Assembly (NCBI GenBank): GCA_028753945.1
Contig: JAPNXP010000016.1
Span: 2,450,001-2,514,000 of the forward strand
Reading direction: 5' to 3'
Origin: Hexactinellida sp. DTS-2022
Taxonomy: Eukaryota; Porifera; Hexactinellida
Length of the DNA stretch: 64,000 nt
In this document: positions 12,104-42,526 of the stretch, piece after piece
Numbering within the stretch: the first letter of the stretch is position 1
Layout of the letters: every line of letters begins with the position of its first letter
Notes under the pieces: generated by a model
What the model saw: the letters and a program-made list of their open reading frames with translations, nothing else
The model's database searches: none
What the model was told of the DNA's origin: nothing
Translations under genes and position numbers: made by a program

Positions 12104-12570
12104 CTAAAAATACAAAAAAAGTTGGTAAACTTATCTGAATTTTTTTTAAATTATGGCAAAGTAGATATAGTTTGCACGTCAATTGAACCCATAAATACCA
12201 AACTTTTTAAGTAATCACACAAACATAAATCAATTATTTAAGTCCATTACATGCAAATGAAGCCCAATTCATTTAATTAACAGAACATATAGAAAGTGTA
12301 AAATGAAATCATTTTTGTAAGATTGCTACAAAAGTACCTAACATGAATATATTCCAATTATTAAATTGAACTATTTTCACTCAAAAAGTCCCCAATTGGT
12401 TGGTTAATGTCTAAGTGGATTCTAGGCCATTATCGAATACATATAAATCTCTAAATAAGTCGAATATGAAAGACAAATTAGGTATAATGCATTAATTGGG
12501 AAGCCAAGATCAATCGAAGCCAAATGTATCAGTACTGTCATAAGAACATGGCATAATCAAAATAGCAGAG

Positions 12571-12578
12571 TATAAAAG
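12571..12578 (+). promoter_or_regulatory. TATA box of the gene at 12,616
   Basis: TATAAAAG lies 45 bp upstream of the ATG, which is a typical spacing for a short 5' UTR. Confidence 0.55.
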
Positions 12579-12615
12579 CATATAATTCAGCTAACAGATA
12601 TTGTATTTATTGAAA

Positions 12616-13074
12616 ATGGGAGGTTGTTGTGATTGCTCTGTTTGCTACAGAAAGAATAGGAGTTGTATTCTATGTTTTTGTATGTTCTTATTCATAATAA
12701 TATCTATAGCAGTAGCTGTAGTAACAATTGCGGGCGTTTTAATGATATTACAGGTTTTCCAGCTTATTAAGGATGCTCAAGATGGCAATAACATCACAAG
12801 AGATGAACTGATCAGTAATTTCAATCGACATTGGTATATCATGTCGGCCTCATTCTTTCTGTTAATTATAATATCAGTATCATATCTTTGTAGCCATTTA
12901 AGCTGTATTTGTAATCTGATAAGAATGAATAGGAAAATAGAAAAGGGAAAGAAGAAAGGAAATATTGAGAAAGGAAGTGAAACGAGTCCGCTGTTAAAGA
13001 AACAAGGGAAATTAGTTGTCGGGAAGGACAGAGGAGTTATCGACATGGATCATGCAAGAGAGGAGGTTTATTAA
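12616..13074 (+). CDS. Cys-rich two-span membrane protein with dileucine tail
   Basis: 152 residues from ATG 12,616 (the frame upstream offers only TTG). A Cys-rich N terminus (GGCCDCSVCYRKNRSC) precedes membrane segments at 17-47 and 73-97, with a 25-residue loop between. The basic tail has an acidic dileucine motif ETSPLL (122-127), of the kind that binds AP adaptors. An AATAAA lies ~75 bp after the stop. It belongs by size and topology with the neighbouring two-span genes but has no PPxY. Function unknown. Confidence 0.75.
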   Translation: MGGCCDCSVCYRKNRSCILCFCMFLFIIISIAVAVVTIAGVLMILQVFQLIKDAQDGNNITRDELISNFNRHWYIMSASFFLLIIISVSYLCSHLSCICNLIRMNRKIEKGKKKGNIEKGSETSPLLKKQGKLVVGKDRGVIDMDHAREEVY

Positions 13075-13456
13075 GATTGTTATTTATTTGTATTTATTTT
13101 GTATTTAACTGAGGGAAGTATATATTTATATATTGCTAAATTGAGATAATAAAGTTTGTGTTCTTAATTTTTGTTATAAATAATGACCTTGCCAGTGCCT
13201 GAAATAACATTAGAAAAGGTGTTGACCGAAGTAATTCCTAACGAGAATTTGATAATAATTATTCCTATAAAATTAGAACAGACAAATAAATACAGTTGTT
13301 TATTGGAGAAAATACTAATCCATAGTTGAAATGAATTATTCAAACTAAAACTAAATACAATTACTAATATTATTCAAAATAATATAGGATACCAAATTCC
13401 TTCACACAACTCATTAAATACACAAAAATATATACATTTATATCAGACCCCAGGCA

Positions 13457-13789
13457 CTAAATACTCGGATAAATGGGTTCATAATAATTAGGTGTTATTC
13501 TAGCTCGCACATTCTCTCTGCTATAAGTTGGAGGAGGGGTACTTGGCCTCTGAAAATAATCACTTTGCGAGAGTTGATTGTATCTCCGGTTAGTATGTTG
13601 ATTTAATTTATTGATCCAAGAGGGTTCAAGTATACTTATGCACATGAAACAACAACAAAAACAACAAGCGCAAATTGATACTGAAACTAGAATTGAAAAA
13701 CTAGCTACGGCAATAAAAGGAGCAATGAAAACAGCAAATATAACTAAGAACAAGAAAATACAAACTTTTTCAAAACTATTTTCAGCCAT
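13457..13789 (-). CDS. Short PPxY membrane protein, internally deleted paralogue of 15,273
   Basis: 110 residues. Residues 9-55 are one long hydrophobic, Cys-rich stretch; the tail has EPSW, KLNQ and PPPTY (PPxY, 86-89), then ENVRARI. Nearly the same tail (SSW, KLNQ, PPPTYS, ENERARI) is found in the gene at 15,273. Relative to that protein, about 35 residues are missing: the end of the first membrane segment, the extracellular loop and the start of the second. This leaves a fused hydrophobic block. The frame is intact and the region upstream still has a TATATA, so it may be expressed with altered topology. Confidence 0.72.
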   Translation of the reverse strand: MAENSFEKVCIFLFLVIFAVFIAPFIAVASFSILVSVSICACCFCCCFMCISILEPSWINKLNQHTNRRYNQLSQSDYFQRPSTPPPTYSRENVRARITPNYYEPIYPSI

Positions 13790-15272: not shown

Positions 15273-15719
15273 TCAGGGAATAATTTGGTTATAAGTTGGT
15301 ATTATCCGAGCCCGTTCATTCTCTGCAGAGTATGTAGGTGGAGGCGTTCGGGGAGTGATACCCGCGAAATAATCTTCTGTTTGCGGTTGTTGGTTGGTAA
15401 TAGGCTGATTTAACTTATTCTTTCTCCAAGAAGATTCACGAAACTTTGCATACACAACACAAGAGGAAATTTGACAAGCACAAACAGATACTACAATAAG
15501 TAATGAAAACCCAGCTACGAATAATGATCTATCACAATAAGGGTAGTAATCATAATAATAATTTGGTTCTCTGAAATAACAATCTGTGACTAAGTCAAGT
15601 GACATTGACGCTATGACAATACCAGCTATTGAGACACAAGGAACAATGCATGCGGCAGGTATAAATAGGAATAAATAAACACAGACTTGCTCACATTTGA
15701 GACAACATTTTTTCCCCAT
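15273..15719 (-). CDS. Two-span PPxY membrane protein
   Basis: 148 residues. Membrane segments at 12-38 and 65-91 flank a loop with a Tyr-rich stretch between two cysteines (C47, C62). The cytosolic tail has SSW, then PPPTYS (PPxY at 127-130). PPxY is the ligand of WW domains, as in NEDD4-family ubiquitin ligases. It is the intact parent-type copy of the gene at 13,457. A TATATAAAAG lies 26-35 bp upstream of the ATG. Function unknown; an adaptor or ligase-recruiting role is inference. Confidence 0.8.
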   Translation of the reverse strand: MGKKCCLKCEQVCVYLFLFIPAACIVPCVSIAGIVIASMSLDLVTDCYFREPNYYYDYYPYCDRSLFVAGFSLLIVVSVCACQISSCVVYAKFRESSWRKNKLNQPITNQQPQTEDYFAGITPRTPPPTYSAENERARIIPTYNQIIP

Positions 15720-16105: not shown

Positions 16106-16528
16106 TTAGTCAGAATTTCTTCTTAAAGATTGAGATAGCAGAGATGAATATAAGGGGGGTGGGGTGGTTGTTTGAATGAGTGAAGTTGAATCGGAAATTG
16201 TTCTCTCAAAATCTTGATGTAAGTTCATGTGAGCAAAATGCCTTCGTTTTTCCCAACTCTGTTCTCTTAGCTTGTAAAGGCAAGTACATAAGAAACATAC
16301 ACAACCCAGTATTGATACTATTAATAGCATTATAGCACAAAGTATGTATATCTGATAATAAGGACCCACATCATGAGTACAGAATGGTGCTCTGTTAACA
16401 TTATCCGCAATTCCAAGTCCTGATATTATTATCCCAGTTAGAAAACAGAACGGTAAGAAAAGCCCTAATATTAGTATGCATAAAGTTACTATTCTCTCCT
16501 CTAGTGAAATTACAACAATAAATTCCAT
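16106..16528 (-). CDS. Two-span PPxY membrane protein
   Basis: 140 residues. The N terminus ISLEERIVT leads into membrane segment 12-38; a 20-residue loop follows, then membrane segment 60-85, a YKLRE(Q/H)SW juxtamembrane motif, and a tail with PPPLYS (PPLY 124-127). It is closely related to the gene at 17,232 (shared ERIVT, PFC, GLGIADN, CAIMLL, YKLRE, SW.KR) and more distantly, through ESSW/PPxY, to 15,273. Confidence 0.8.
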   Translation of the reverse strand: MEFIVVISLEERIVTLCILILGLFLPFCFLTGIIISGLGIADNVNRAPFCTHDVGPYYQIYILCAIMLLIVSILGCVCFLCTCLYKLREQSWEKRRHFAHMNLHQDFERTISDSTSLIQTTTPPPLYSSLLSQSLRRNSD

Positions 16529-17231: not shown

Positions 17232-17663
17232 CTAAGGTAGGCTTAGAGAATCCCTTGCATTCCATGACTCCACTTGTGTAACTGAGTAGATGGGAGCAGG
17301 GGTACGGCCCTGCGGTAGAATAGAAGTATAAATACCTCTCTCGGTCTCACTTCGGGGGTTCAGTCTATCAACATCATTTTGAGCTGCGTCATAAATGTAC
17401 TTTCGCTTCGCCCAACTGTGTTCTCTTAACTTGTATATAACAGTACAGGAATAACATATACAGGCTAATATTGATATTGTTAGTAGCATAATAGCACATG
17501 TTAGGTATATCTGAGAGTAATTTGGTCTATTTATATTATCTGCAATCCCCAGGCTTGAAATTATAATGCCGGAAAGCAAACAGAATGGCAAAATACATCC
17601 GGATAAACAGATACTGACAGTAACTATTCTCTCTTCAATGGAGACTCTACCAAATAATTTCAT
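17232..17663 (-). CDS. Two-span membrane protein, PPxY-decayed paralogue of 16,106
   Basis: 143 residues with the same layout as its neighbour (VSIEERIVTV, GLGIADNINRPNY, YKLREHSW). The tail position occupied by PPPLYS in the paralogue reads TPAPIYS here, so the first Pro-Pro pair is broken (APIY, 123-126) and WW binding may be lost. The loop is also nine residues shorter, without the Cys-Thr-His stretch. Confidence 0.78.
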   Translation of the reverse strand: MKLFGRVSIEERIVTVSICLSGCILPFCLLSGIIISSLGIADNINRPNYSQIYLTCAIMLLTISILACICYSCTVIYKLREHSWAKRKYIYDAAQNDVDRLNPRSETERGIYTSILPQGRTPAPIYSVTQVESWNARDSLSLP

Positions 17664-18145: not shown

Positions 18146-18553
18146 ATGAATAGAGATAATGCATGGTTGTTCCTTAATTTGTGGGTTCAATTGGCTGGAT
18201 TGAATCTGAGTATATTTATAATTTGGCACGTTTTTGTAATTATTCTTCTAGCACCTCCCTATGTGAACTATAACAAATTAGTACCGCCAAACAATAGCAT
18301 TTTTGTGAATAAAATAATGTTAATTGTAGGGATTATATATTGGATGCTATTCGCTTTTTTAAATTTAACAGTAGGTATATACACTGTGGTATATTATCAT
18401 AAAAGCATTTATGATGCTAAGGAAGATATTTGCAGACAGGAGAGAAAAATCGCTGTACTACAGAGACAGCTGAATCTGAGACCCAGGCTCAATTTAGTGA
18501 GTACGGATAATGAAGTGGCTGCTGATACAGAAATAGGACAAGCTCAAAACTAA
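18146..18553 (+). CDS. Two-span membrane protein with coiled-coil tail (alpha copy 1)
   Basis: 135 residues. Membrane segments at ~12-36 and 56-82, then a charged helical tail (DAKEDICRQERKIAVLQRQL) that looks coiled-coil, and an acidic end with DNEVAADTEIGQ. The tail and DNEVAA.TEIGQ.QN recur in the gene at 20,845. No PPxY. AATAAA lies ~18 bp beyond the stop. Function unknown. Confidence 0.75.
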   Translation: MNRDNAWLFLNLWVQLAGLNLSIFIIWHVFVIILLAPPYVNYNKLVPPNNSIFVNKIMLIVGIIYWMLFAFLNLTVGIYTVVYYHKSIYDAKEDICRQERKIAVLQRQLNLRPRLNLVSTDNEVAADTEIGQAQN

Positions 18554-19751: not shown

Positions 19752-20249
19752 ATGCAATCAACGAATCAAAAGATTAAAACCTGTCTAAGTGTTTGGTTTA
19801 TAATAGTTGTAATGAATATTGGCATATTTCAATTGTTGGAGTGGTTAGTATTAGCTAATTTATTCGATTATACAACCTACATTTGTTATGGAAATAGTAC
19901 ACATGTGGGTAAAACAAATAGCTCTTATTGTACAATGAACATTGTTGTATTGAGTGGAACTTTTGTAACTTGGGCATGTACATCTGTAATTGAGCTTTGT
20001 TGGATATCAATTCTAACTTTAAGTAGAAAAAAACTTGAAACTGAGCAAGTAAAGAGTGCAAATCTAGGGCTACAGGTAACAGAGTTGCAGAGACAACTGA
20101 ATGAGAGGCCTAATAGGAATAATATTCGCATAGAAAGGCCGAATAACGATGAACCTAGGTACATAGAGCTACCCAATGAAAGGAGACAGTTGCTGACACA
20201 AAGTCAGCAGCCGAATTACCAAGCTACTAACACGTTACCAGAGCAATAG
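19752..20249 (+). CDS. Two-span membrane protein with dileucine tail (beta copy 1)
   Basis: 165 residues. Membrane segments at ~13-37 and 63-90. The loop has Asn-rich glycosylation-like sites (NSTH, NSSY). The tail has a short coiled coil, then RPNNDEPRYIELPNERRQLL, an ExxxLL dileucine motif, and QPNYQ. The block PNERxQLLTxxQxPNYQ is also present in the genes at 22,410, 23,215, 25,482 and 26,852, showing common descent. AATAAA is ~70 bp beyond the stop. A role in endocytic sorting is inference from the motif. Confidence 0.78.
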   Translation: MQSTNQKIKTCLSVWFIIVVMNIGIFQLLEWLVLANLFDYTTYICYGNSTHVGKTNSSYCTMNIVVLSGTFVTWACTSVIELCWISILTLSRKKLETEQVKSANLGLQVTELQRQLNERPNRNNIRIERPNNDEPRYIELPNERRQLLTQSQQPNYQATNTLPEQ

Positions 20250-20844: not shown

Positions 20845-21327
20845 ATGGAGGAAAAAAATGGAAATGATTCTGTGTGGTTTTTTTATTGGAATAAGTTAAT
20901 TTTGTTTAATTTGAAAATATTTATATTTTGGCAATTAATGGTATGGTTTATTCTAATAGTTCAAATCTCGGAATTACCTGACTCTATGAACTATAGTTAC
21001 TATACCAATTCACAGGGTACAGAAAATTCACCAAACAATGTAACAAATAATGAACAAAATACTTCGGTGTATAATATAATATTAATTGTAGGAATGTTGT
21101 GCATAATGGTATTCTTTTTTGTTGTTGAATTGGGATCGTATTTCGTTACAATTAATTATTTTAGAAAAATCGAAAAGGTTAATGAAGATATTTGCGAGCA
21201 GGAGATAGAAATCGAAGAACTGCAGGGAGAGCTGAATCAGACATCCAGACTCAATTCCGTTAGACCGGACAATGAAGTGGCTGCTAATACAGAAATAGGG
21301 CAAACTCAAAACCAATTAACCATCTAA
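20845..21327 (+). CDS. Two-span membrane protein with coiled-coil tail (alpha copy 2)
   Basis: 160 residues. Membrane segments ~15-38 and 77-104. The loop is longer than in copy 1 and Asn-rich with several N-glycosylation sequons (NYS, NVT, NTS). The tail NEDICEQEIEIEELQGEL is strongly acidic where copy 1 is basic/neutral, then DNEVAANTEIGQTQN. Unit order (alpha-beta-alpha-beta) shows it arose by duplication of a two-gene block. Confidence 0.77.
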   Translation: MEEKNGNDSVWFFYWNKLILFNLKIFIFWQLMVWFILIVQISELPDSMNYSYYTNSQGTENSPNNVTNNEQNTSVYNIILIVGMLCIMVFFFVVELGSYFVTINYFRKIEKVNEDICEQEIEIEELQGELNQTSRLNSVRPDNEVAANTEIGQTQNQLTI

Positions 21328-22409: not shown

Positions 22410-22889
22410 ATGCAACCAAAAAAGAATAAGATTGGATCCTGTGTAAAAATTTGGTTAATTATAGTTGTGGTATATCTTTGCTTATTTCAGTTGGTGCAGT
22501 GTTCAGTATTAGCTAATGTATTCGATAATATCTATCATACAAACAGTTCGATTAATACTAGTGCCCCCTATATCCTCAAAATTGTTGTACTGAGTGGAAC
22601 TTTTGCTTCTTGTGTGTGTACTTCTGTAATTGAGCTATTTTGGATATCAATAATATGTTTCCATGGAAAAAAAATTGGAATTATGCGAGTAAAAAGTGCA
22701 AAACTAGGATTACTTGTCATAGAACTGTGGAGACAACTGGATGAGAGGCCTAATAGGAATATTATTCGCATAGTAAGGCCGAATAACGATGAATTTATGG
22801 ACACAGAGCTACCCAATGAAAGGGAACAGTTGCTGACACAAGGTCAGCTGCCGAATTACCAAGCTACTAACACGTTACCAGAGCAATAG
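22410..22889 (+). CDS. Two-span membrane protein with dileucine tail (beta copy 2)
   Basis: 159 residues from ATG 22,410; the codon five positions upstream is TTG and is not used as the start. It is the paralogue of the gene at 19,752: the membrane segments, RPNRN.IRI.RPNNDE, ELPNEREQLL (ExxxLL) and QLPNYQATNTLPEQ are shared to the last residue. In the juxtamembrane region ICFHGKKIG replaces LTLSRKKLE. Loop sequons (NSSINTS) are kept. The 3' flank is also conserved for ~60 bp. Confidence 0.78.
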   Translation: MQPKKNKIGSCVKIWLIIVVVYLCLFQLVQCSVLANVFDNIYHTNSSINTSAPYILKIVVLSGTFASCVCTSVIELFWISIICFHGKKIGIMRVKSAKLGLLVIELWRQLDERPNRNIIRIVRPNNDEFMDTELPNEREQLLTQGQLPNYQATNTLPEQ

Positions 22890-23101
22890 CTAACTACATT
22901 GCTACTTGTGTACATAATATAGTTATCTGTGTTTGTCTGTTAATATTGTACATAATTACCCATTAAACTGTTTGAATATTTTAGGATTAATTAATAGATT
23001 AACATCGATAAATAAAGTTATTAGTTAGGTATTCTGAGGTATTATATAACTGTTTGTTAATCAGGAATTTTCAATATACTGTAAGAGAATTAAACTCATT
23101 A

Positions 23102-23214
23102 TAGTCAGTAATTAAATATACCCTAAATAGGATAGGGAAATTCAATACCCTAGCTATAATTTACTAATATATAAATTAGTCTCAAATCTTTTTGAATCAA
23201 ATTATATTCAAAAG
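23102..23214 (+). promoter_or_regulatory. Promoter block 1 of the triplicated genes, with CArG box
   Basis: Nearly identical to 25,363-25,481 and 26,720-26,851. It contains CCTAAATAGG at 23,122-23,131, a perfect CC(A/T)6GG serum-response-factor-type CArG box 84 bp before the ATG, and a TATATAAAT-like element ~40 bp before the ATG. Confidence 0.6.
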
Positions 23215-23727
23215 ATGTCGGAAAGAAGTTGTTACAGTTTAGCATTTGTGTGGATGACGTTAGCATTTATGTTTCCTTACTTTAACGGTGTTTGGCAATT
23301 AATGGTTTTTAATAATCTAATGGATTATATGAACAATACTTGTAATATCAACCAAACTACAAGCTATATAGGCTCATCTATTAATCTAACGAATATCACG
23401 ATCGCGAGCGAATCAGATTGTGTGTATACTCAAATATTAGCTTTTGGAGTAATCATTTTTTCTGGTTTATTAGTGCTAGGGACATGGGTATGGGTTTTTT
23501 TAGCCTATTTTTATATAATTAAATCAAATAAATTGCAGAAGGAAATAATAAGATTGGATAGAGAAGATAGACCTCAATCGATAGCACAAGTTAATAGAAG
23601 GATTGGGAATGATATAGGAAGGCCGAATAATGATCTACCTGCATACACAGAACTACCAAACGAAAGAGGACAACTTCTTACAAGGAACCAACTACCAAAC
23701 TATCAAGATATAATAGATAATAACTAA
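23215..23727 (+). CDS. Two-span LPxY/dileucine membrane protein (triplet copy 1)
   Basis: 170 residues. Membrane segments ~9-32 and 74-102 flank a loop with two cysteines (C43, C69) and N-glycosylation sequons (NQT, NLT, NIT). The tail carries LPAYTELPNERGQLL: an LPxY motif (141-144), a dileucine ERGQLL (150-155), and then LPNYQDI (160-163). LPxY is a variant WW-ligand; ExxxLL binds AP adaptors. The stop codon lies in a (TAAC)n microsatellite. Function unknown; endosomal sorting or ligase recruitment is inference. Confidence 0.82.
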   Translation: MSERSCYSLAFVWMTLAFMFPYFNGVWQLMVFNNLMDYMNNTCNINQTTSYIGSSINLTNITIASESDCVYTQILAFGVIIFSGLLVLGTWVWVFLAYFYIIKSNKLQKEIIRLDREDRPQSIAQVNRRIGNDIGRPNNDLPAYTELPNERGQLLTRNQLPNYQDIIDNN

Positions 23728-23745
23728 CTAACTAACTAACTAACT
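23723..23745 (+). repeat. (CTAA)n microsatellite at the stop codon
   Basis: Short tandem CTAA units supply the stop of copy 1. Copy 3 has a much longer array and copy 2 none. Confidence 0.9.
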
Positions 23746-23986
23746 GAGCTTGTATAATTTGTTGTTTTTAATATTATACCTACGTATTTTGTAAATTAGT
23801 AAATGCTTTGAGTGTTTCATGATTAGTTCAATAATTGTATTTGTGCTATTGTATGATAGTTTAATTAAGTTAAATAAGAAAAACGCTAAAAGTGTACTGT
23901 CATAGTTTTAATATTGTGCAAAATAATTCAGTAAAGATCATCGAGTAGTAATTACGTCATGGATAGTGGAAATCCATGCTACATCT

Positions 23987-24899: not shown

Positions 24900-25214
24900 T
24901 ACAGTTAGTTTTTTTCTCAAATTCCAGGGTTTGTTAGTATGGATTAGCTAGACTTCATCAATTAGTAAGACTTCATCAATTAGTATAAATAGACTGTGCA
25001 TAATAGAAAGAATTTCTGAAGCTGCAATCTGATTGAGTGAAAATATATTCATTTAACCAATCAATCATTTGTCTATTCTATTGCATGTTTTTCTTTGAAT
25101 ATCCCAAACAAATTACATTGTATAGCATTCTTATTAAGGGGACTTTATGAGGAATATATTTAATACACCACAGAGATTAATTCTAAATGTTAAGTTTCAA
25201 GGTAGTCAAATGAG

Positions 25215-25285
25215 GCGTGAAGCTCCAAACCGTCGCAAAGCGACCGAGATCGAAGGGCTCGTGGTATTAATACTAGCATTGAAGC
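25215..25285 (+). mobile_element. Helitron-like 3' end relic
   Basis: GTCGCaaaGCGAC, then CGAGATCGAAGGGCTCG and ...taatactag, as at the 3' end of the element at 23,987-24,899. A near copy lies at ~26,596-26,637 in the next tandem unit. Confidence 0.5.
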
Positions 25286-25362
25286 ACTAAAATACAATAT
25301 AACCTCGTTAGTACGGTGAATCAATAATTTTAGGATAATTAAACTCATAGTACGCCCATTGC

Positions 25363-25481: not shown

Positions 25482-26015
25482 ATGTCGGAAACAAATAGTT
25501 CAGTTTTACCATTTCTGTGGATGGCGTTATCATTTGGGTTTTCTGCCTTTAGCGCTAGTTGGCAATTCATGGCGTTTAGTAATCTAATGGATTATATGAA
25601 CATTACTTGTAAAAGCAACCAAAGTATGAGCTATATAGGCTCATCTATTAATCTAACGAATATCACGAGCGCGAGCGAATCAGATTGTGTGTATACTCAA
25701 ATATTAGCTATTGGAGTAGGCATTCTTTCTACATTATTAGTGCTAGGGACATGGGTATGGATCTTTTTAGCCTATTTTTATATAAATAAATCAAATCTAT
25801 TGCAGAAGGAAATAAAAAGAATACGATTGGAGAGAGAGGCTAGAACTCAATCGATAGCACAAGTTAATAGAAGGATTGCGAATAATATGGGAAGGCCGAA
25901 TAATGACCTACCTGCATACACAGAACTACCAAACGAAAGAGGACAACTTCTTACAAGGAACCAACTACCAAACTATCAAGATATAGATAATAACCAGCTA
26001 ACTAATCTTGTATAA
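25482..26015 (+). CDS. Two-span LPxY/dileucine membrane protein (triplet copy 2)
   Basis: 177 residues, very close to copies 1 and 3: MSETNSS start, Trp-rich membrane segments (WMALSFGFSAFSASW), loop sequence SYIGSSINLTNIT, tail LPAYTELPNERGQLL and LPNYQDI. It lacks the TAAC array, so translation reads on to NNQLTNLV. The juxtamembrane stretch has a three-residue insertion (KRIRLER) shared with copy 3 but not copy 1, so copies 2 and 3 are the younger pair. Confidence 0.82.
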   Translation: MSETNSSVLPFLWMALSFGFSAFSASWQFMAFSNLMDYMNITCKSNQSMSYIGSSINLTNITSASESDCVYTQILAIGVGILSTLLVLGTWVWIFLAYFYINKSNLLQKEIKRIRLEREARTQSIAQVNRRIANNMGRPNNDLPAYTELPNERGQLLTRNQLPNYQDIDNNQLTNLV

Positions 26016-26851: not shown

Positions 26852-27360
26852 ATGTCGGAAACAAATTGTTCAATGTTACCATTTCTATGGATGGTGTTAT
26901 CATTTGGGTTTTCTGCCTTTAACTGGAGTTTCCAACAAATGGTGTTTGTCAGTCTATTGTATTATGTGCAAAATACTTGTAATAGCAAACAAACTACGGG
27001 CTATATAGGCTCATCTATTAATCTAAGGAATATCACGAGCGCGAGCGAATCGGATTGTGTGTATACCCTCATATTAGCTGTTGGAGTAGGCATTCTTTCT
27101 ACATTATTACTGCTAGGGACGTTTGCATGGAACTTTGTAGCCTATTTTTATATAAATAAATCAAATCTATTGCAGAAGGAAATAAAAAGAATACGATTGG
27201 AGAGAGAGGCTAGAACTCAATCGATAGCACAAGTTAATAGAAGGATTGGGAATGATATAGGAAGGCCGAATAATGATCTAACTGCTTACACAGAACTACA
27301 AAACGAAAGAGGACAACTTCTTACAAGGAACCAACCACCAAACTATCAAGATATAGATAA

Positions 27361-27367
<7 letters not shown>
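26852..27367 (+). CDS. Two-span dileucine membrane protein (triplet copy 3)
   Basis: 171 residues. Same plan as copies 1 and 2 with MSETNCS at the start. The tail reads LTAYTELQNERGQLL: the LPxY proline is lost (LTAY), the dileucine is kept, and the distal motif is PPNYQDI, a new PPxY. So the WW-ligand site has moved rather than vanished. The membrane-proximal half (NWSFQQMVFVSLLYYVQ) is the most divergent part. The stop is inside a long (TAAC)n array. Confidence 0.8.
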
Positions 27368-27393
<26 letters not shown>

Positions 27394-27445
27394 GACTAAC
27401 TAACTAACTAACTAGCTAACTAGTAATTAACTAACTAACTAACTG
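27362..27445 (+). repeat. (TAAC)n microsatellite at the stop codon
   Basis: About 20 TAAC units with a few changes begin at the last codon of copy 3 and supply several in-frame stops. Confidence 0.9.
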
Positions 27446-28167: not shown

Positions 28168-28665
28168 ATGGTTAATGTTAATGTTTCTATTCACACTAAA
28201 ACACAGATTTTCTATTGCCTAGTAACTCCATTAACGCTTATAAGTTGGATTGTTTTAGTACTGTCGTGTTCTTGGTCAATAACTCAACTTCAATCACGGC
28301 ATACTTGCAATAATAAGGGTGATAATCCCATCGAGTATTTAGAAGATAACTGCCAAAAGCTAATTATAGGTGCAGTGTGTAATATTTTGCTCTCAGTTAT
28401 AATAATTGGATACTGCACAGTTACTTTACCGTTCATTTGGTACTTACAACGCGTGGTACGAACATTCTCACTACAAACTTCAGATAACAGCTATACACAG
28501 TACATAGACTCTGCTAATAGGAATATAGGCATAGAGTATAGGCATAGAGAGAGCTTTCTTCCTTCTTACAGGACCGCTACAATGACAGCAGATACCACAG
28601 ATATAAACAGAAACCTGCTAACAGATGAATCCATGGTTGCAGAGGGGTATAGCATGAGAAATTAA
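28168..28665 (+). CDS. Two-span LPxY membrane protein
   Basis: 165 residues. Membrane segments ~13-36 and 66-93; loop with C47 and C62 (HTCNN, DNCQK). The tail has FLPSYRTAT (LPxY) and a late dileucine-like NLLTDE. It shares the plan of the triplet genes but little sequence. No duplicate in the window. Function unknown. Confidence 0.75.
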   Translation: MVNVNVSIHTKTQIFYCLVTPLTLISWIVLVLSCSWSITQLQSRHTCNNKGDNPIEYLEDNCQKLIIGAVCNILLSVIIIGYCTVTLPFIWYLQRVVRTFSLQTSDNSYTQYIDSANRNIGIEYRHRESFLPSYRTATMTADTTDINRNLLTDESMVAEGYSMRN

Positions 28666-29604: not shown

Positions 29605-30069
29605 ATGTGTAACTCTTCCGTACGGCTAATACTATTCGCCTGTGTATTTGGGTTTATAACAATCCTACTTACCCTAACTATAATATGCGGACTATACCTA
29701 TTCGTGCTAAGCTGGTCTCAATTCTGTCAAACGATTCCTATTGGCTGCGAAGACTGCCATGCAATAACTACAAACTGTGATTATCTCGTCGCTTCTACTA
29801 CACTACTTTCTGGGCAATCAGCTTTGGTTATAATCTGTTTCTATTCTATAATATGTTTCTACGCATCAATCAGAAGGACTGGTGATAATAGTAATGGGAT
29901 ATTAGATGGGGAATCTACACCGGAAATAGCAACACCTTTCATAATGTCTAATCCTGTGAGAGGTCCAGTTAACACCCCTGGGGCCCTACCCCCCTATTCG
30001 GAGGCGCCTAGTGACAGAGAGTGTCTCGTTAGGCCGAGACAACCCCCAACCTACGATGATATAAACTAG
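29605..30069 (+). CDS. Two-span membrane protein with two PPxY motifs
   Basis: 154 residues. Membrane segments ~7-35 and 67-90; the 30-residue loop has five cysteines (CQ, GCEDC, NC...). The tail has ALPPYSEAPSD and ends RQPPTYDDIN: two classical PPxY motifs, the second at the extreme C terminus as in many WW-ligand proteins. The coding sequence is less AT-rich than its neighbours. The start lies only 41 bp after a MITE. Confidence 0.8.
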   Translation: MCNSSVRLILFACVFGFITILLTLTIICGLYLFVLSWSQFCQTIPIGCEDCHAITTNCDYLVASTTLLSGQSALVIICFYSIICFYASIRRTGDNSNGILDGESTPEIATPFIMSNPVRGPVNTPGALPPYSEAPSDRECLVRPRQPPTYDDIN

Positions 30070-30885: not shown

Positions 30886-31467
30886 TTACAGACGGGAATC
30901 TTTTACAGACGGGAATCTTTCCAGGGCTTCCTTATTATCGACATTAGATTGATTAACAACAGAACCGTAATTAGGCAGGTTATCCGAGAGGTGTAGTAAC
31001 TCGCGATTTGCGTTTGGGGGAACAAACACATTTCTGTAAGATTCATTTTCTCGCGGTATATGTATGTTTTGTACTTGAGGCTTCATAGTCAATCTTTGAT
31101 TTTCAAATTGCAAGTTTGTATTACACTCCTGCATAGTTGCAATTTCATTTTTAAGAGAATTTATTTTGAAATTAATTTTTTTCTTATTAGCTTTAAATAT
31201 GTTCCAACATATTATTACCAAGAAAACCGAAGTAACAACAAGTGCAATTGCGAATAGGTTATTCAGTATAGCAGTTGCAGGTAAGAAACATTGAGTCAAA
31301 CCGTAATTAGTAGAATACTCCTTATAATGCAAACAGGTCTGCTTAATGTCACTGAAATTAATGTTGGTGAGTACGAGTAAGGTTGGAGAAGATACTGTTA
31401 CGAATAATATCGAAGCAATGAAAGGGATTGAGCATACTATGAGAGCTATATTTACGTTTTTACACAT
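30886..31467 (-). CDS. Two-span coiled-coil membrane protein with LPxY
   Basis: 193 residues, the longest of this group. Membrane segments ~7-31 and 63-88; loop with C45 and C60. A basic/heptad helix (KKKINFKINSLKNEIATMQE) predicts a coiled coil, followed by a tail with ELLHLSDNLPNYGS (LPxY). The last codons are altered by a 17-bp tandem duplication at 30,884-30,917. Opposite in strand to the triplet genes. Confidence 0.78.
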   Translation of the reverse strand: MCKNVNIALIVCSIPFIASILFVTVSSPTLLVLTNINFSDIKQTCLHYKEYSTNYGLTQCFLPATAILNNLFAIALVVTSVFLVIICWNIFKANKKKINFKINSLKNEIATMQECNTNLQFENQRLTMKPQVQNIHIPRENESYRNVFVPPNANRELLHLSDNLPNYGSVVNQSNVDNKEALERFPSVKDSRL

Positions 31468-31958: not shown

Positions 31959-32402
31959 TTAGAAAAGTACATCAGTTGTTCTGTCAGATTGCTCAACAAT
32001 AATATCCAAATAGGCCGGTGGTCCCGTTATAGGAGAGTTTACGTCATCAAAGTTATAAGAAGGAAGACTTTGCGAAGTCGGAATACTATCTCTGGTCCTG
32101 CGCCTGTGATGCCTCCTTCTTGAAGCCATTATTTTCTGTAAAGTTTCAATTTTGTATTCTTTTTGTTGGACAGCAATAATTAGCCCACCTGAAAGTGCTA
32201 TAAAGCATATTAACCCTACTGTAGTGAATGCTAGCACAGTTGTTACGAGATATTTCCATGCATAATGCTGGCAATTCTCTTCAGTCCAAACAGAATAAAG
32301 ATAAGCAAGCTGGGCTGGAACAGAACAAATTGTCCACAGAACAAGAACACTGAAAATAGCGAGAGAGCAAGCAAATTTACACGTATTACAGCGAGATGAC
32401 AT
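31959..32402 (-). CDS. Two-span membrane protein with LPxY and PPxY
   Basis: 147 residues. Membrane segments ~10-36 and 50-78 with a very short loop. An Arg/His-rich juxtamembrane run (SRRRHHRRRTR) follows, then SLPSYNFDD and TGPPAYLDI, one LPxY and one PPxY. Upstream on the minus strand a TTTTATAAC lies ~30 bp before the ATG. Function unknown. Confidence 0.78.
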   Translation of the reverse strand: MSSRCNTCKFACSLAIFSVLVLWTICSVPAQLAYLYSVWTEENCQHYAWKYLVTTVLAFTTVGLICFIALSGGLIIAVQQKEYKIETLQKIMASRRRHHRRRTRDSIPTSQSLPSYNFDDVNSPITGPPAYLDIIVEQSDRTTDVLF

Positions 32403-33013: not shown

Positions 33014-33463
33014 TCAGTTACTTTGTGCAAACTGTGTATAGGAGGGTGGACTGGTTTCTGAAAACTCTCTGTTATCAGTGAAAGGTACGTAACCTTGAAA
33101 AGGTAAAGTTAAACTGCTGTTATTGAATAACCGGCTGCTCGCTCTAAAAGACGCGATTTCATCGTCTCCCCAAGAATCTCCGAAATTGGAACGAATTTCA
33201 TGCGTGTCGGTCCAAATAGCAAGTGTGAAACAACAACAACAAATGGCCAGACAGGCAAACAGTAATCCGATTATAAACTGAGCTCCTAATACGGTTAAAA
33301 TCGCGATGAGACATTGCTGTACATCTTTAATACTTCGCGGTTCACTTAGACCGCCTATTGCGAAATATACTGCTATGACCAGAGTAGATACTTCCAATAT
33401 TAATGTACAAAAACAAAATGAAATTGCACAACAAGAAATACAACATTTCGGCGATTTAGCCAT
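33014..33463 (-). CDS. Two-span Cys-rich PPxY membrane protein
   Basis: 149 residues from ATG 33,463; the frame extends ten codons upstream only from a TTG. A Cys-rich N terminus (KCCISCCAISFCFC) enters membrane segment one; segment two (~53-80) ends in CCCCF, so both ends are probably palmitoylation-like clusters. The tail has SETSPPSYTQF, a PPxY. Both the N-terminal cysteines and the tail recall the gene at 15,273. Confidence 0.78.
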   Translation of the reverse strand: MAKSPKCCISCCAISFCFCTLILEVSTLVIAVYFAIGGLSEPRSIKDVQQCLIAILTVLGAQFIIGLLFACLAICCCCFTLAIWTDTHEIRSNFGDSWGDDEIASFRASSRLFNNSSLTLPFQGYVPFTDNREFSETSPPSYTQFAQSN

Positions 33464-34112: not shown

Positions 34113-34445
34113 ATGCCAATAACAACAACTTACAAGAGTGGAACAAGCGAAATTATGGAATTGAGTCTCAATCCTAAATTGTTACTAACATATTATGTTT
34201 ACTTGTGTTTGTTAGTTTTTTTACAAATCATAATATTTGCTCTGAAAGGACAATCGAACTTTGAATGGAATTGTTATCTGGATGTAATTCTTCTGATGTT
34301 ACTGATAATATCAAATGTTCCTATCGCAATTGTTAACTTATTTCTTATCCGCAAAATGCAAGGGGCAAACGCTGTAATGAAATTAGACAAGAAAACAATC
34401 TATGTTCATTCGAGGATGGTTGAATTCAGAACAACTTATTTCTAA
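34113..34445 (+). CDS. Small two-span membrane protein
   Basis: 110 residues. Membrane segments ~22-45 and 54-79, a short loop (KGQSNFEWN) and a basic tail without PPxY. The start follows the inverted MITE by 130 bp. No relative recognised; could be a shortened member of the array. Confidence 0.6.
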   Translation: MPITTTYKSGTSEIMELSLNPKLLLTYYVYLCLLVFLQIIIFALKGQSNFEWNCYLDVILLMLLIISNVPIAIVNLFLIRKMQGANAVMKLDKKTIYVHSRMVEFRTTYF

Positions 34446-35038: not shown

Positions 35039-35293
35039 ATGCTGAAAGAAACTCTCTATCTATTAATCATATCCTTATATGGAGTGATGTCAGAAATATC
35101 GCTTAACCTAGATGAAGTATCTGCAGAAATAAATACAGTTAATTTAGGATTATTATTTGGAGGCGGGAGTTCACTTCTAATTGTGTTTGTTATGCTAGTT
35201 GTTGCAATCTGCTTTATTATTATGGTGGGATCATTTATTGGCTGTTGTTGCAGTCATATGGTTCATGAAACAGAGTCTAAAATCCATTTGTAA
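35039..35293 (+). CDS. Small type I-like membrane protein
   Basis: 84 residues. A hydrophobic start (KETLYLLIISLYGVMS) looks like a signal peptide, then ~20 residues of acidic ectodomain, one membrane segment at ~40-70 and CCCSHMVHETESKIHL as a tail. It may be a much reduced member of the array or an independent gene. AATAAA occurs ~105 bp after the stop. Confidence 0.5.
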   Translation: MLKETLYLLIISLYGVMSEISLNLDEVSAEINTVNLGLLFGGGSSLLIVFVMLVVAICFIIMVGSFIGCCCSHMVHETESKIHL

Positions 35294-36413: not shown

Positions 36414-37214
36414 CTAGGGATTAGTAGTAGAATCATCAGTTATAAAGTTTTCACTCGCTCTACCATTGGTTTTCCCTCCAACAGTAGAATAATGTCTGAT
36501 CACTTTAGCCCCATCTACATACCCTGTTTCTACGTGCTGTTGAATAACCAAAGGAGTTTTATCGCTTGTCACTGTTCTACTGTTTCTGTTGGTAGATAGA
36601 GTGCGATGCGAACCCTGGGGGGACACGAATCTTGCTCCCTTGTGATCTCCTAGCTCTTCGTCACACGAGCAAGTTAGACAGCAGATAATAGCACAGCAGA
36701 AACTCAATAGGAAAATACAAACGGATGTGCCTAATACTGCGTATGATACGATTATAGGAATGTTTATGTAATAGCATCCCCAGTCAACGTTTGTAGAAGA
36801 GTTGGTGCTATTAGCGAGTGATATGAATGCAGATATATTATTGTTGTTCAGTGGAATAGGCAAAGCACAATGTTCATTTTCTTCTACCTCACAGTGAGAT
36901 ATCTCAGTGGAATCAGTGGAGTTAGTTTCATGAAGGTAGAGGGTGACTGATGAATGTTTTGGAGCTGTAACTTGCAAGAAAGTTAGAATCCGATTTTCGT
37001 AGAACTGAGACATATTTTCCGGACAACGAAGAGGAGAAAATTGAATTAATTGTTTGATGTTTGGTAGAATTAAATCGGTATTATTATTATAACCAGCATT
37101 AATATTTCTATCTCTGGTTATTCCCCATATAATGCTACTCGTTATAATCAGTAGCAAACTAAATATAAGAAAACCAGTGCTACAAATGAATCCGACAAAA
37201 GAAATCGTCCCCAT
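36414..37214 (-). CDS. Two-span membrane protein, four-cysteine ectodomain
   Basis: 266 residues from ATG 37,214 (the longer frame needs a TTG). Membrane segments 6-30 and 152-182. Ectodomain: RCP (C64), SVTLYLHE, HCEVEENEHC (C108, C116), DWGC (C147), with several N-glycosylation sequons. A Cys-rich membrane exit leads to an 80-residue cytosolic tail ending VETGYVDGAKVIRHYSTVGG... The cysteine positions 64/108/116 are identical to those in the gene at 37,921, its closest relative. Confidence 0.82.
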   Translation of the reverse strand: MGTISFVGFICSTGFLIFSLLLIITSSIIWGITRDRNINAGYNNNTDLILPNIKQLIQFSPLRCPENMSQFYENRILTFLQVTAPKHSSVTLYLHETNSTDSTEISHCEVEENEHCALPIPLNNNNISAFISLANSTNSSTNVDWGCYYINIPIIVSYAVLGTSVCIFLLSFCCAIICCLTCSCDEELGDHKGARFVSPQGSHRTLSTNRNSRTVTSDKTPLVIQQHVETGYVDGAKVIRHYSTVGGKTNGRASENFITDDSTTNP

Positions 37215-37920: not shown

Positions 37921-38529
37921 TTATGTCAGACTATTGTACGGTGTTCTTTCAGGCGATTTAATGTCAGGATCCAGTCTTTCATTCAAGCATTTCCGAATTG
38001 GAATTCCGAAAAAGAAACAACAACTTGTGAATAGACATATGCCTGCTATAAATAGAACTACAATAGAAAATACGAACGGCAAATTCAGATAGTAACAACC
38101 CCAATCAACAGTGTACATAGGATCTCTTCCTTGAGCCAAAACGAAAGCGAATATATTATCCAAATTAGGAATATTCAGGGCACAAGTGGATTGACTTTCT
38201 GTTTGACAAGAATCTAGTTCGTTGCCATTTCGAGGCATACTTGTGTTGTAAAGAGTTAAAGTTAATCGAGCGTCAAAATGAGATTCTATTTTGAGGTATA
38301 TTAAGAAAGGTTGGGAATAGAAATATGTAATATTAGGACAGTTAAGATTCGGGTTGAAAGGTAATAAAGTATTAACTCTGGTTGTCACTGTTGTTTTATT
38401 CCATGAAATTCCCGCTTCGAGATTATGTTCAGAAAGTATAAAAATAGCAATACTCGTTACAAGGAAAAATAATGAGAAACAAATAATTATAAATAAACAG
38501 AATAAACAACAATATTCTTTCTTTTTCAT
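37921..38529 (-). CDS. Two-span membrane protein, four-cysteine ectodomain
   Basis: 202 residues. A KKKEYCC start precedes membrane segment 9-32; ectodomain NCP (C64), RLTLTLYN, SCQTESQSTC (C108, C116), VDWGCYYLNLPF (C145); membrane segment 151-176, then a short tail with SPERTPYNSLT. VDWGCYY(I/L)N(I/L)P is shared with the gene at 36,414. Confidence 0.82.
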   Translation of the reverse strand: MKKKEYCCLFCLFIIICFSLFFLVTSIAIFILSEHNLEAGISWNKTTVTTRVNTLLPFNPNLNCPNITYFYSQPFLIYLKIESHFDARLTLTLYNTSMPRNGNELDSCQTESQSTCALNIPNLDNIFAFVLAQGRDPMYTVDWGCYYLNLPFVFSIVVLFIAGICLFTSCCFFFGIPIRKCLNERLDPDIKSPERTPYNSLT

Positions 38530-39340: not shown

Positions 39341-39649
39341 ATGGAAGAATCTGGAAGTTTAGGCAATTGTGAAATATGCAAGATTCCATTTGGCAGAAAT
39401 AAAGTATTCCTGAAATTAATCCTCACAATATTAATTGGATTTGTACTAACTTGTATTACATTTGCATTAGCAATTGCAGTTATAATCACTATTGAAAATC
39501 CGTTAACTTTAAGAGATATTATTCTAATAATCTTTATGAATATTTGTGGGTTAGTTTGCTGTGGTTATTACGTGATAGTGAGCTTATATTGTATTTGTTC
39601 ATTCGTAATAGTTGTATGTTATAACGTAATGTTTAACTCTGATGACTAG
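39341..39649 (+). CDS. Small two-span membrane protein
   Basis: 102 residues. N terminus MEESGSLGNCEICKIPFGRN has a CxxC pair; membrane segments ~22-48 and 59-92; a very short end (MFNSDD). No tail motifs. Sits between two four-cysteine genes but has no such ectodomain. Unrecognised. Confidence 0.6.
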   Translation: MEESGSLGNCEICKIPFGRNKVFLKLILTILIGFVLTCITFALAIAVIITIENPLTLRDIILIIFMNICGLVCCGYYVIVSLYCICSFVIVVCYNVMFNSDD

Positions 39650-40044: not shown

Positions 40045-40144
40045 CAGTATACTCCGCTTAATAGAGCCACCGGTTAATTGGGTTTCCGCTTAATTGGGTC
40101 AAACTACCCTTGGACCAAATGACCCAATTAAGTGGAGTGAATTG
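40045..40144. mobile_element. MITE, CAGTATACTCCGCTTAATAG family
   Basis: Inverted ends cagtatactccgcttaatag / aattaagtggagtgaattg. 100 bp. Confidence 0.7.
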
Positions 40145-40699
40145 TACTTAGTAACACCTGTTAATACTTTTCGGGAAAAGGTGAACAAATTTAGAAGGCT
40201 TCTGAATTTTAAATTCAGAAGAATAATCATATTATTTACCTAATTAATTTTAATTAGAATAATAATATAATTGTTATTAGTTACATAACAAACATTAATC
40301 TATTTATTATAAGATTGTGGTTTTAATCAGTAAGGTTTAAATTAACTATGAACCCATTATTAGTACATAATATTACCTAGCAATTAACTAAACCATTATA
40401 GTCAACATAACCGTACTTTACCTATTAGTCTTCAAACACTGGTTTGACTACAGTTAAACTGTTCTCTGTTATTAGCTAAAGTAATGAAGACTTAATTATA
40501 TTTCACATATGTTGGTTATTGATTAGTAAATCTACATAACCAGTTTACATTAGTAAATCACACAAGAAAACAGAACAGTGAAACCATTAAAATATCGCGA
40601 CTTGGAACGAACAGTGACTTTATTGAAAAGTCTTATAAAGTCGATCACAAGACTAAACTTTTTGTATAAAAATATGAAATGAGATCGTTTTGAAGCAAA

Positions 40700-41302
40700 A
40701 TGGAGAAAAGTAGATATATTTTTGTAATAACTTTTGTTATTTGTATTTTATTGTTACTTATCTCTATGTTGGTTTGTGGAGGATTGTGTATTTTAATCCT
40801 ATCTCTCGTCAACAACAACAACAACAACAATAATTCTTTCAGACAAAGTATAAATTTAACTAGCAACCAGACTCTACAATTGGAATTGAAAGCAAAAGAT
40901 TGTCCAAGTTACATATTGGACAACAAACAAACATATATTCCCCTCAAACTCTCAATCTCAAATCCAATTATATCAAAATTCAGTGTTTACCTTACCGCGG
41001 AAAGTAACGAATCAAATTTCAACAAAAGTTGTTCAACACTTCCAGGCGAGAAATGTATTATTATCCTTGACAACAGCGAAATATTCACTCTCACAATCCA
41101 TTCTACCAAATCGGTTGCTAACAACACTCAAAGCATAGAGCTTGTACTAACATGTGCTTCCAATACAAATCATTTGTTAATCGTAGGAGCAATTCTATTG
41201 GTTATTGGGGTTATTGTTGGTATCGGTTTGTTGTTGTTTATTTTTATAATTCTGTTTGACTGGTGTTTTTTCCAAGACAACACAAATGCTGTTTATGGAT
41301 AA
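40700..41302 (+). CDS. Two-span membrane protein, four-cysteine ectodomain
   Basis: 200 residues. Membrane segment 8-36, a polyasparagine run (38-45, from an AAC microsatellite), then ectodomain DCP (C68), SVYLTAESN, SCSTLPGEKC (C111, C119) and LTC (C152, the usual Trp is absent); membrane segment 159-187 and a short tail. C-x7-C spacing is conserved with the other members. Confidence 0.8.
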   Translation: MEKSRYIFVITFVICILLLLISMLVCGGLCILILSLVNNNNNNNNSFRQSINLTSNQTLQLELKAKDCPSYILDNKQTYIPLKLSISNPIISKFSVYLTAESNESNFNKSCSTLPGEKCIIILDNSEIFTLTIHSTKSVANNTQSIELVLTCASNTNHLLIVGAILLVIGVIVGIGLLLFIFIILFDWCFFQDNTNAVYG

Positions 41303-41510
41303 TACAGTGTATTCTAATTAATGGATTGTTTGTTACACAAATATATTTATATTATATATTCAATTATTATTTCATTTTTCCATTTGTGTATAAGTTAGTA
41401 AAATTTTACTAGTGATAAAATTTGCCAGTTTGTCATTCAAGTATATTTTAACAATCTCAAAATAATTCCATTAAACCTCAAATACAATAATGAGCAACAA
41501 ATATAAAGCA

Positions 41511-42290
41511 TTAAACATATTTAATCTGACTTTCAACTGGTGTACTTTCAACAAACGGAGTCGTAGAAGGGAAATCTGGACAAGCGAATTCCTCTCTATA
41601 TTCCATAGCAACCGTAGTAGAATTAAATTCTTTTTGAGTTCCTAAATAATTTATCTTTTCTTCTAAATACTTGGCGCAACGAATCGATAGACAACTGTAG
41701 TATACTAACACAAATATTAGCAGTAGTGTTAGTGAAATGACTAGAAAACAAATTGAAGATGTTTTGGCAGGGTTTATCCAGAAATCACAGTACCAAATGA
41801 ATTGTATGGAATTATTACGGATATTTCTCGTGGAGGTTGGTACAACTAATGCGAAAAAATGTGAATGTGAAAGTGGGAATCTGAGTGTACAAACCGAACC
41901 AGGGACGGAAGCACAAGTTGAAATGAGATTTGTGTAAATATTATTCTTATCTTTCCCTTCGTAATAATGCAATAATAAACTCTCACTTGATTCTGAATCT
42001 GTTTGTAAATTCAATTGTAAAATACGGTACACATCGTCAAATGGAAAAGTATTCATTTTTGGACAAACGTCGGTTTTGAAATTCAAATCACTTGGTTCAC
42101 CATTTTTAATTTCACCAACATAAAAATTTGTTGGATCAGTAGTTAATGATGTCATTGTCAAAATAACCGAAGAAATAATTGCTCCGAACAATAAAAATAT
42201 TGACACGAGTGTGGAAATAAGGAAACAACACTGAACAGTGAATTTCTTACATTCACAAATAGTAGCGATATATGTCAAGAAATAAACCAT
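41511..42290 (-). CDS. Two-span membrane protein, four-cysteine ectodomain
   Basis: 259 residues. A 20-residue N terminus, membrane segment 21-46, ectodomain VCP (C76), SLLLHYYEG, TCASVPGSVC (C126, C134), WYC (C168), membrane segment 177-200 and a ~55-residue tail with FPSTTPFVESTPVES. It is convergent with the gene at 40,700 and the last nested gene before the next ZFYVE26-like exon (236 bp away). Confidence 0.82.
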   Translation of the reverse strand: MVYFLTYIATICECKKFTVQCCFLISTLVSIFLLFGAIISSVILTMTSLTTDPTNFYVGEIKNGEPSDLNFKTDVCPKMNTFPFDDVYRILQLNLQTDSESSESLLLHYYEGKDKNNIYTNLISTCASVPGSVCTLRFPLSHSHFFALVVPTSTRNIRNNSIQFIWYCDFWINPAKTSSICFLVISLTLLLIFVLVYYSCLSIRCAKYLEEKINYLGTQKEFNSTTVAMEYREEFACPDFPSTTPFVESTPVESQIKYV

Positions 42291-42526
42291 TAGGTCAATT
42301 ATAAAATTATAAAATATGAACCTCTATTCATGCATTAACATTAATTAAATATACGTACACTATTTCTATTATATACATATACATATATATACGCACATGT
42401 TTTTACCATTGAATGAATCCACCACAAAAATCATGTTGAATAAGAATAAACCATGCAAAAGTGGGAAGCCCATTTATATTAAAATTACCCACAATTAAAT
42501 TCCAATCAACAAATGTGTTAACTCAC

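What the first reader, a model, noticed from the sequence alone, without database searches (positions are those of the whole stretch)
12104..42526. A ~30-kb intron of a ZFYVE26/spastizin gene houses an array of 24 small membrane-protein genes
Seen: exons at 42,527-42,682 and 11,903-12,103 are both phase 0, have good splice signals, and encode segments adjacent in animal ZFYVE26. Between them lie 24 intronless genes on both strands, against 270-860 bp for most other introns. A lineage-specific family has expanded inside a housekeeping lysosomal gene. Transcribing the host across antisense and sense nested promoters raises questions of interference and co-regulation.
Basis: partly seen in the sequence, partly recalled or inferred. 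Interest (0 to 1): 0.9.

Follow-up and report, generated by a model that had tools for sequence, protein, structure and literature searches.

The report
Membrane-gene array inside a ZFYVE26 intron
In a compact animal genome, one intron of the lysosomal gene ZFYVE26 holds about two dozen small membrane-protein genes, and other large introns of the same gene hold further gene families, which makes the locus an unusually crowded natural test of how genes live inside other genes.

Summary
Window 12,104-42,526 is a 30,423-bp gap between two phase-0 exons of a minus-strand ZFYVE26 gene that align to adjacent parts of human ZFYVE26. It contains 24 ORFs of 84-266 aa with predicted membrane segments, 14 on + and 10 on -; 23 ORFs of >=100 aa are seen against a shuffled mean of 0.36. 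Two related ORFs lie in the next intron. Three contig lengths in public assemblies recur for relatives of nested genes and of a ZFYVE26 exon, which argues against a misjoin.

The finding is larger than reported. Parts of ZFYVE26's N-terminal half lie upstream of the window on the same strand, so the host spans about 124 kb. Two more gaps, 37.5 and 20.3 kb, hold NXF1, an NHL array, Ig-type ORFs and others: 43 nested ORFs in four introns.

The array is several families, not one. Tails carry PY motifs (12 of 26) and acidic dileucines (9 of 26), suggesting endolysosomal Nedd4-type adaptors; that function is inferred. Nested clusters are known (GMC genes in Flo-2, TipE), so this is a large new variant. 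No RNA was available.

The parts
45937..46144 (-). host exon with FYVE domain; its acceptor ends large gap B
   Evidence: FYVE 6.1e-13; splice sites read by hand
45099..45576 (-). host exon; single copy in genome; apparent GC donor
44344..44656 (-). host exon
43655..43950 (-). host exon
43075..43275 (-). host exon
42527..42682 (-). host exon upstream of the giant intron, donor GTGAGT
12104..42526 (-). giant intron C of ZFYVE26, 30,423 bp
11903..12103 (-). host exon downstream of the giant intron; no Met
11238..11282 (-). host exon, 15 codons
8740..11237 (-). intron D, 2,498 bp, holds two family-A genes; its acceptor lacks a clear T-rich tract
8560..8739 (-). host exon
7964..8266 (-). terminal host exon region (acceptor not fixed), end of TPR_ZFYVE26 domain
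9483..10010 (+). nested family A gene, 175 aa
   Evidence: P0016 62%
10427..11137 (+). nested family A gene, 236 aa
12616..13074 (+). nested two-TM gene, ETSPLL tail
   Evidence: P0006-P0009 70-88%
13457..13789 (-). nested family C gene, PPTY
15273..15719 (-). nested family C gene, PPTY
16106..16528 (-). nested family C gene, DSTSLI + PPLY
17232..17663 (-). nested family C gene
18146..18553 (+). nested family B gene
19752..20249 (+). nested family B gene, ERRQLL
20845..21327 (+). nested family B gene
22410..22889 (+). nested family B gene, EREQLL + LPNY
23215..23727 (+). nested family B gene, LPAY + ERGQLL + LPNY
25482..26015 (+). nested family B gene, LPAY + ERGQLL + LPNY
26852..27367 (+). 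nested family B gene, ERGQLL + PPNY
28168..28665 (+). nested two-TM gene, LPSY
29605..30069 (+). nested two-TM gene, LPPY + DRECLV + PPTY
30886..31467 (-). nested two-TM gene, LPNY, weak family B similarity
31959..32402 (-). nested two-TM gene, LPSY + PPAY
33014..33463 (-). nested two-TM gene, PPSY
   Evidence: P0004 74%, P0005 62%
34113..34445 (+). nested short ORF with two TM, 110 aa (less secure)
35039..35293 (+). nested short ORF with one TM, 84 aa (less secure)
36414..37214 (-). nested family A gene: TM, beta-sandwich ectodomain, TM, DKTPLV tail
   Evidence: (P0010-P0012 61-82%)
37921..38529 (-). nested family A gene
39341..39649 (+). nested short ORF with three hydrophobic segments, 102 aa (less secure)
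40700..41302 (+). nested family A gene
   Evidence: P0013-P0015 64-69%
41511..42290 (-). nested family A gene
46145..64000 (-). window part of large gap B (C8:2496145-2533694, 37,550 bp) between ZFYVE26 exons
48098..50245 (+). NXF1 as one ORF, 715 aa, nested in gap B
50937..52205 (+). nested NHL-array gene
52988..54166 (-). nested NHL-array gene
55304..56494 (-). nested NHL-array gene
58367..59566 (+). nested NHL-array gene

Best explanation
This is a real cluster of 24 small membrane-protein genes nested in one intron of an intact-looking, single-copy ZFYVE26 gene. It is one of four gene-bearing introns of a host spanning about 124 kb. Shown: exon collinearity with human ZFYVE26 on one strand; plausible splice signals with matching phase at all four gaps; ORFs far beyond chance; relatives of several nested genes and of a host exon in other assemblies. 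Inferred: a few single-exon genes entered the introns and multiplied by local duplication. Each nested gene is transcribed from its own promoter on either strand. The host polymerase reads through, and the 30-kb intron is removed as ordinary intron RNA, ignoring nested poly(A) sites. Inferred with less confidence (about 0.35): many of the nested proteins are short, mostly two-pass membrane proteins whose cytosolic tails recruit WW-domain (Nedd4-type) ubiquitin ligases through PPxY/LPxY and AP adaptors through acidic dileucines, sorting partner proteins to endosomes and lysosomes.
For: Host: E 3.3e-68, human 1805-2447; E 2e-16, four stretches in order between human 343 and 1580, two of them weak alone; human 1531-1745, 1805-1989; PF25569 TPR_ZFYVE26 42.9 bits, cutoff 27; one copy of the exon tested. 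Splice sites. ORFs. Confinement: (and 23 with one clear exception). Relatives; contig lengths 566854, 293435 and 1378725 each occur for nested-type proteins and for the ZFYVE26 exon. Motifs: (PY in 12 of 26 tails, shuffle mean 0.54, maximum 4; dileucine in 9 of 26, mean 2.3, reached in 2 of 2000 shuffles; recent duplicates are counted singly, so the counts are not fully independent); recurrence in relatives.
Against: No RNA evidence. Five recent paralog pairs have Ka/Ks of 0.86-1.63, so some copies may be relaxed or diversifying; two older pairs give 0.24 and 0.31, one is saturated. No enrichment of U1-type donor sequences (GTRAGT 9 against 12.7 shuffled) and no recursive splice sites on the host strand. 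Contig identity in relatives rests on equal lengths; 2 of 5 host-exon contigs and 4 of 7 nested-type contig lengths have no counterpart in the other list; gene order was not seen. Pfam Comm and WBP-1 matches are below cutoff. 14 of 26 tails lack a PY motif. Human 1-342 was not found, about 1000-1529 was not identified, and an undetected small exon could lie in gaps A or B. Intron D's acceptor is weak.
Confidence: 0.75

Rival explanations
1. ZFYVE26 is split into two or more transcription units that are joined by trans-splicing or make separate proteins; the nested genes then lie between, not inside, genes.
For: Three gaps of 20-38 kb are unusual next to introns of about 360-620 bp. No RNA was available. 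Trans-spliced leaders are reported for a ctenophore (PMC8527503).
Against: The parts found lie on one strand in collinear order. Phase matches at each gap, and the exons after gaps B and C have no start codon of their own before their conserved part. Trans-splicing would not need collinearity.
Confidence: 0.12
2. The interval is an assembly misjoin that put a separate gene cluster between two ZFYVE26 exons.
For: The five genes tested have nearly all relatives at this locus, and the intron is 50 or more times longer than most of its neighbours.
Against: A misjoin would have to fall within an intron with strand and phase kept. Family A occurs on both sides of two host exons. Three contig lengths recur for both gene sets in other assemblies. 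Contig C8 is 3.08 Mb.
Confidence: 0.03
3. The nested proteins are fast-diversifying surface receptors (recognition or immune type) rather than trafficking adaptors; the tails are only their internalisation signals.
For: Heads of the recent triplet change faster than tails (Ka 0.18-0.24 against 0.07-0.11), with head Ka at or above Ks. Family A has a predicted beta-sandwich ectodomain between two TM helices. Recent tandem duplication is visible.
Against: Predicted loops of families B and C are short. Ks of the heads is also raised in two of three comparisons, which fits mosaic gene conversion as well as selection. Genes 12616, 33014 and 36414 are 61-88% identical in relatives.
Confidence: 0.25
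4. Many of the 24 ORFs are decaying copies or chance AT-rich ORFs with spurious TM segments.
For: Ka/Ks near or above 1 in five pairs. Short ORFs 34113, 35039 and 39341 have no paralog hit at E 1e-3 and were not searched in other genomes.
Against: 23 ORFs of >=100 aa against 0.36 in shuffles, 20 of >=130 aa against none. tblastn at E 1e-3 found no fragments outside the ORFs. Relatives exist for genes or groups at six positions.
Confidence: 0.07

Closest known systems
[quoted passage not shown] melanogaster and other insects (PMC1891103; abstract and passages)
   Same: A gene family clustered in one large intron of a conserved membrane-associated host, kept in several species, with relatives elsewhere.
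   Different: In D. melanogaster 12 GMC genes plus one other in an 83-kb intron, GMC genes all in one orientation, opposite to the host. Here 24 ORFs in 30 kb, both strands, several families, and further families in other gaps of the same host.
TipE cluster in the last intron of CG18675 (PMC3240667; passages)
   Same: Two-TM proteins with an extracellular loop nested in an intron of a conserved host, largely stable across insects.
   Different: Four TipE-family genes plus VhaM9.7-c in D. melanogaster; sodium-channel auxiliary subunits. No relation in sequence to the present families was detected in the limited tests made.
Nested intronic genes of the ctenophore Hormiphora (PMC8527503; abstract and passages) and of the glass sponge Aphrocallistes (PMC10282587; abstract and passages)
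   Same: Compact early-animal genomes with many nested genes; parallel ones are reported for Hormiphora, and single-exon genes are common in Aphrocallistes.
   Different: 2357 nested genes in 1654 hosts (about 1.4 per host) and 2432 nested genes; no host with tens of nested genes appears in the passages read.
Commissureless / PRRG4 / CYYR1-type PY-motif membrane proteins (PMC5578492, PMC11399591; listing and start of abstract only)
   Same: Short membrane proteins linked to Nedd4-family ligases; that this runs through PPxY/LPxY tails is in part recalled.
   Different: Pfam Comm and WBP-1 scores fall below cutoff; here most proteins have two TM segments and some also carry acidic dileucines.

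Membership tests
ZFYVE26 ortholog (host) | FYVE zinc finger followed by the ZFYVE26 C-terminal region | tested here: met
   PF25569 TPR_ZFYVE26 42.9 bits against cutoff 27
ZFYVE26 ortholog (host) | Long N-terminal part collinear with the human protein | tested here: met
   Parts only: human 343-395 (i-E 3.6e-6), 675-747 (2.6), 819-1000 (0.0011), 1529-1580 (1e3), total E 2e-16; 1531-1745 (2e-9). The 1529-1580 exon alone had no hit. Human 1-342 not found, about 1000-1529 not identified
Nested intronic gene cluster | All nested ORFs lie between splice sites of consecutive host exons | tested here: met
   For intron C. For gaps A and B an undetected small host exon is not excluded
Nested intronic gene cluster | Nested genes have transcripts of their own and the host is spliced across them | not testable with these tools
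   no RNA data
PY-motif Nedd4 adaptor | PPxY/LPxY in a predicted tail, conserved in relatives | tested here: met
   12 of 26 genes; present in 5 of 5 relatives of PY-bearing genes, P0001-P0005. 14 of 26 lack it; sidedness of the tail is assumed
PY-motif Nedd4 adaptor | Membership in Pfam Comm or WBP-1 | tested here: not met
   Best Comm 19.5 against 27 bits, WBP-1 17.1 against 28.1; 12 of 26 genes scanned
PY-motif Nedd4 adaptor | Binding to WW domains | not testable with these tools
   none
TipE-like two-TM subunits | Sequence or fold relation to known two-TM subunits | tested here: inconclusive
   No Pfam hit at E 1 for 3 of 6 family A genes, best PDB sequence E 0.72, generic beta-sandwich matches with tied Z

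The most novel reading that the evidence does not exclude
ZFYVE26 in this lineage is a 'hotel gene': about 43 single-ORF genes live in four of its introns, with a family expanding locally in each of the three large ones. The membrane-protein array may form one expression domain with its lysosomal host, supplying endolysosomal sorting adaptors matched to it. The host works because nested poly(A) sites on its own strand (18 of 43 ORFs are sense) are suppressed.
Probability: 0.12. Interest if true: 0.85.

Novelty: new variant of a known kind. Interest (0 to 1): 0.58.

Why it matters
Nested genes are common, but tens of ORFs inside one single-copy trafficking gene, on both strands, with relatives on contigs of the same lengths as ZFYVE26 in three other assemblies, is an extreme case. 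It offers a test of how a polymerase passes many sense and antisense genes with their own ends, whether nested and host genes interfere or share control, and how introns become sites of gene-family birth. Of the 12 nested genes scanned against Pfam none reached a cutoff.
Full report
THE OBSERVATION. The window is C8:2450001-2514000 of a 112.4-Mb, 18-contig genome. A minus-strand gene runs through it. The donor after 42,527 is GTGAGT, the acceptor before 12,103 follows a T-rich tract, and both are phase 0. The exon at 12,103 has no Met and opens right after an in-frame stop that belongs to the acceptor; the exon at 42,527 runs into a stop after two codons. The joined C-terminal exons carry Pfam TPR_ZFYVE26 above cutoff. 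The exon ORF 45,054-45,617 has one match in the genome.

THE ARRAY. Of 32 ORFs of >=60 aa in the 30,423-bp interval, 29 have a predicted membrane segment; I count 24 and leave out five of 63-89 aa. Fourteen are on plus, ten on minus. Shuffling gives 0.36 ORFs of >=100 aa on average against 23. Two more genes lie in the next intron, 8,740-11,237. BLAST among the 26 groups them as family A (9483, 10427, 36414, 37921, 40700, 41511; two TM with a cysteine-bearing ectodomain), family B (18146, 19752, 20845, 22410, 23215, 25482, 26852, weakly 30886 and, by its tail, 29605), family C (13457, 15273, 16106, 17232, weakly 12616), and genes without a paralog hit. Family A lies at both ends and across two host exons; B and C lie in the middle.

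CONFINEMENT. Single-protein searches of the whole genome with 25482, 10427, 15276, 29605 and 37924 found relatives only in these introns, except one 283-aa family-A ORF on C15, with kinase-like ORFs in the flanking 10-kb stretches, and two marginal C1 hits (E about 0.7). The other 21 ORFs were not searched singly.

RELATIVES. Profile searches gave 9 and 7 proteins, without names. They are nearest to 12616 (70-88%), 33014 (62, 74%), 36414 (61-82%), 40700 (64-69%), 9483 (62%) and the 23215/25482/26852 group (about 47-67% to its nearest members). A third search with a ZFYVE26 exon gave 5 proteins, 77-89% identical. Longest-contig lengths 566854 (five nested-type proteins), 293435 (two) and 1378725 (one) recur in that list. 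Lengths 443390, 472265, 785562 and 8521 of nested-type proteins, and 78619 and 2473602 of host-exon proteins, do not recur. Equal length is taken as the same contig; gene order was not seen. No protein search was left for the remaining genes.

SELECTION. Of eight paralog pairs, Ka/Ks was 1.25, 1.63, 1.05, 0.86 and 1.01 for recent ones, 0.24 and 0.31 for older ones, and not computable for one with saturated Ks. In the triplet, heads change faster than tails, in Ka in three of three comparisons and in Ks in two of three; 600 bp upstream of 25482 and 26852 differ by only 3.6%. This fits mosaic conversion or diversifying heads; the data do not separate them.

TAILS AND FOLD. 12 of 26 tails carry PPxY/LPxY (shuffled mean 0.54, maximum 4) and 9 of 26 carry [DE]xxxL[LIV] (mean 2.3, reached in 2 of 2000). 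Recent duplicates count separately there. The reading of these as Nedd4-type and AP-binding motifs is recalled. P0001-P0005 keep the PY motif; of P0006-P0009, two keep E[ST]SPLL and two have SPLM; P0010-P0012 keep DKTPLV. The family A model (mean pLDDT 71.5) is helix, beta sandwich, helix; structure matches are generic.

BEYOND THE WINDOW. The FYVE exon has an acceptor at 46,144 and no Met before its conserved part. Exons of the N-terminal half were found on the same strand upstream: human 343-395, 675-747, 819-1000 and 1529-1580 in L019, L018 and L017 (total E 2e-16, the only PDB sequence at E 1 or better; the second and fourth stretches are weak, and the fourth had no hit alone), and human 1531-1745 from L017, L015 and L011 (i-E 2e-9). 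So the host runs from about C8:2582087 to 2457964, about 124 kb. Four gene-bearing introns or gaps follow, with positions read. A, C8:2534985-2555326 (20,342 bp), has 6 ORFs of >=110 aa: five match one another, one of these passes a Pfam Ig cutoff, and the sixth is Ig-like by eye. B, 2496145-2533694 (37,550 bp), has 11 ORFs of >=110 aa: NXF1, 7 NHL-type, a 606-aa ORF, a PY single-TM ORF and a Q-rich ORF. C is the finding, 24. D, 2,498 bp, has 2. Total 43, with different length thresholds for A/B and C/D; 18 are sense and 25 antisense to the host. Human 1580-1605 and 1745-1805 align poorly, so a small exon could be missed in A or B. NXF1 here is one ORF and gives the best NXF_NTF2 match in the genome (1.4e-37); a second match on C16 is weak (6e-4) but counted over cutoff with its neighbours. 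The NHL genes form a close local group within a large genome-wide family (139 matches), and 10 of 15 Ig matches lie elsewhere.

MECHANISM. Shown by sequence: collinearity, splice signals, ORFs, motifs. Inferred: readthrough transcription and removal of the large introns, own promoters for nested genes, birth by local duplication, and adaptor function of the tails. The lack of a strong strand bias suggests that the host tolerates sense genes with their own ends; no U1-site enrichment was seen to explain this.

COMPARISON. Insect GMC genes in Flo-2 (12 genes plus one in 83 kb in D. melanogaster) and TipE in CG18675 (four family genes plus one) are the nearest precedents found. A sponge and a ctenophore are reported with more than 2000 nested genes each. 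This locus differs in density, both-strand mixing, several families and several introns. I cannot claim a record.

Noticed in passing
C8:2496145-2533694 and C8:2534985-2555326 (window 46145-64000 and loci L010, L011, L015, L016, L017): Two further large gaps between ZFYVE26 exons hold NXF1, an NHL array, a PY single-TM ORF, Ig-type ORFs and others.
   Followed up: yes
window 48098-50245: NXF1 as one 715-aa ORF inside ZFYVE26; best NXF_NTF2 match in the genome, with one weak second match on C16.
   Followed up: partly
window 7525-7779: BBIP10 (BBSome subunit) ORF tail to tail with the ZFYVE26 3' end (PF14777, 5.3e-23).
   Followed up: no
L009:4328-5179: A 283-aa family-A paralog on C15, the only clear one found outside the ZFYVE26 introns; kinase-like ORFs lie in the neighbouring stretches.
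   Followed up: partly
L018:1812-2204: DUF547-like minus-strand ORF (E 0.0018, below cutoff) lying between host exons; host exon or another nested gene, unresolved.
   Followed up: partly
window 23081-27655: Triplet 23215/25482/26852: 25482 and 26852 have nearly identical upstream flanks, and tails are closer than heads, suggesting conversion or diversification.
   Followed up: partly
window 45093-45099: A host intron there seems to start with GC (TGG|GCGAGT). P0017 reads Ala-Ser at that point as here; P0018 reads Val-Ser, which would fit GTGAGT.
   Followed up: no
L011:2003-2443: Single-TM protein with PPNY and LPSY in gap B, Pfam Comm below cutoff, no clear relation to the array.
   Followed up: partly
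C8:2518995-2520113 (L010): One NHL-array gene ends earlier than its neighbours; the aligned stretch holds one stop.
   Followed up: no
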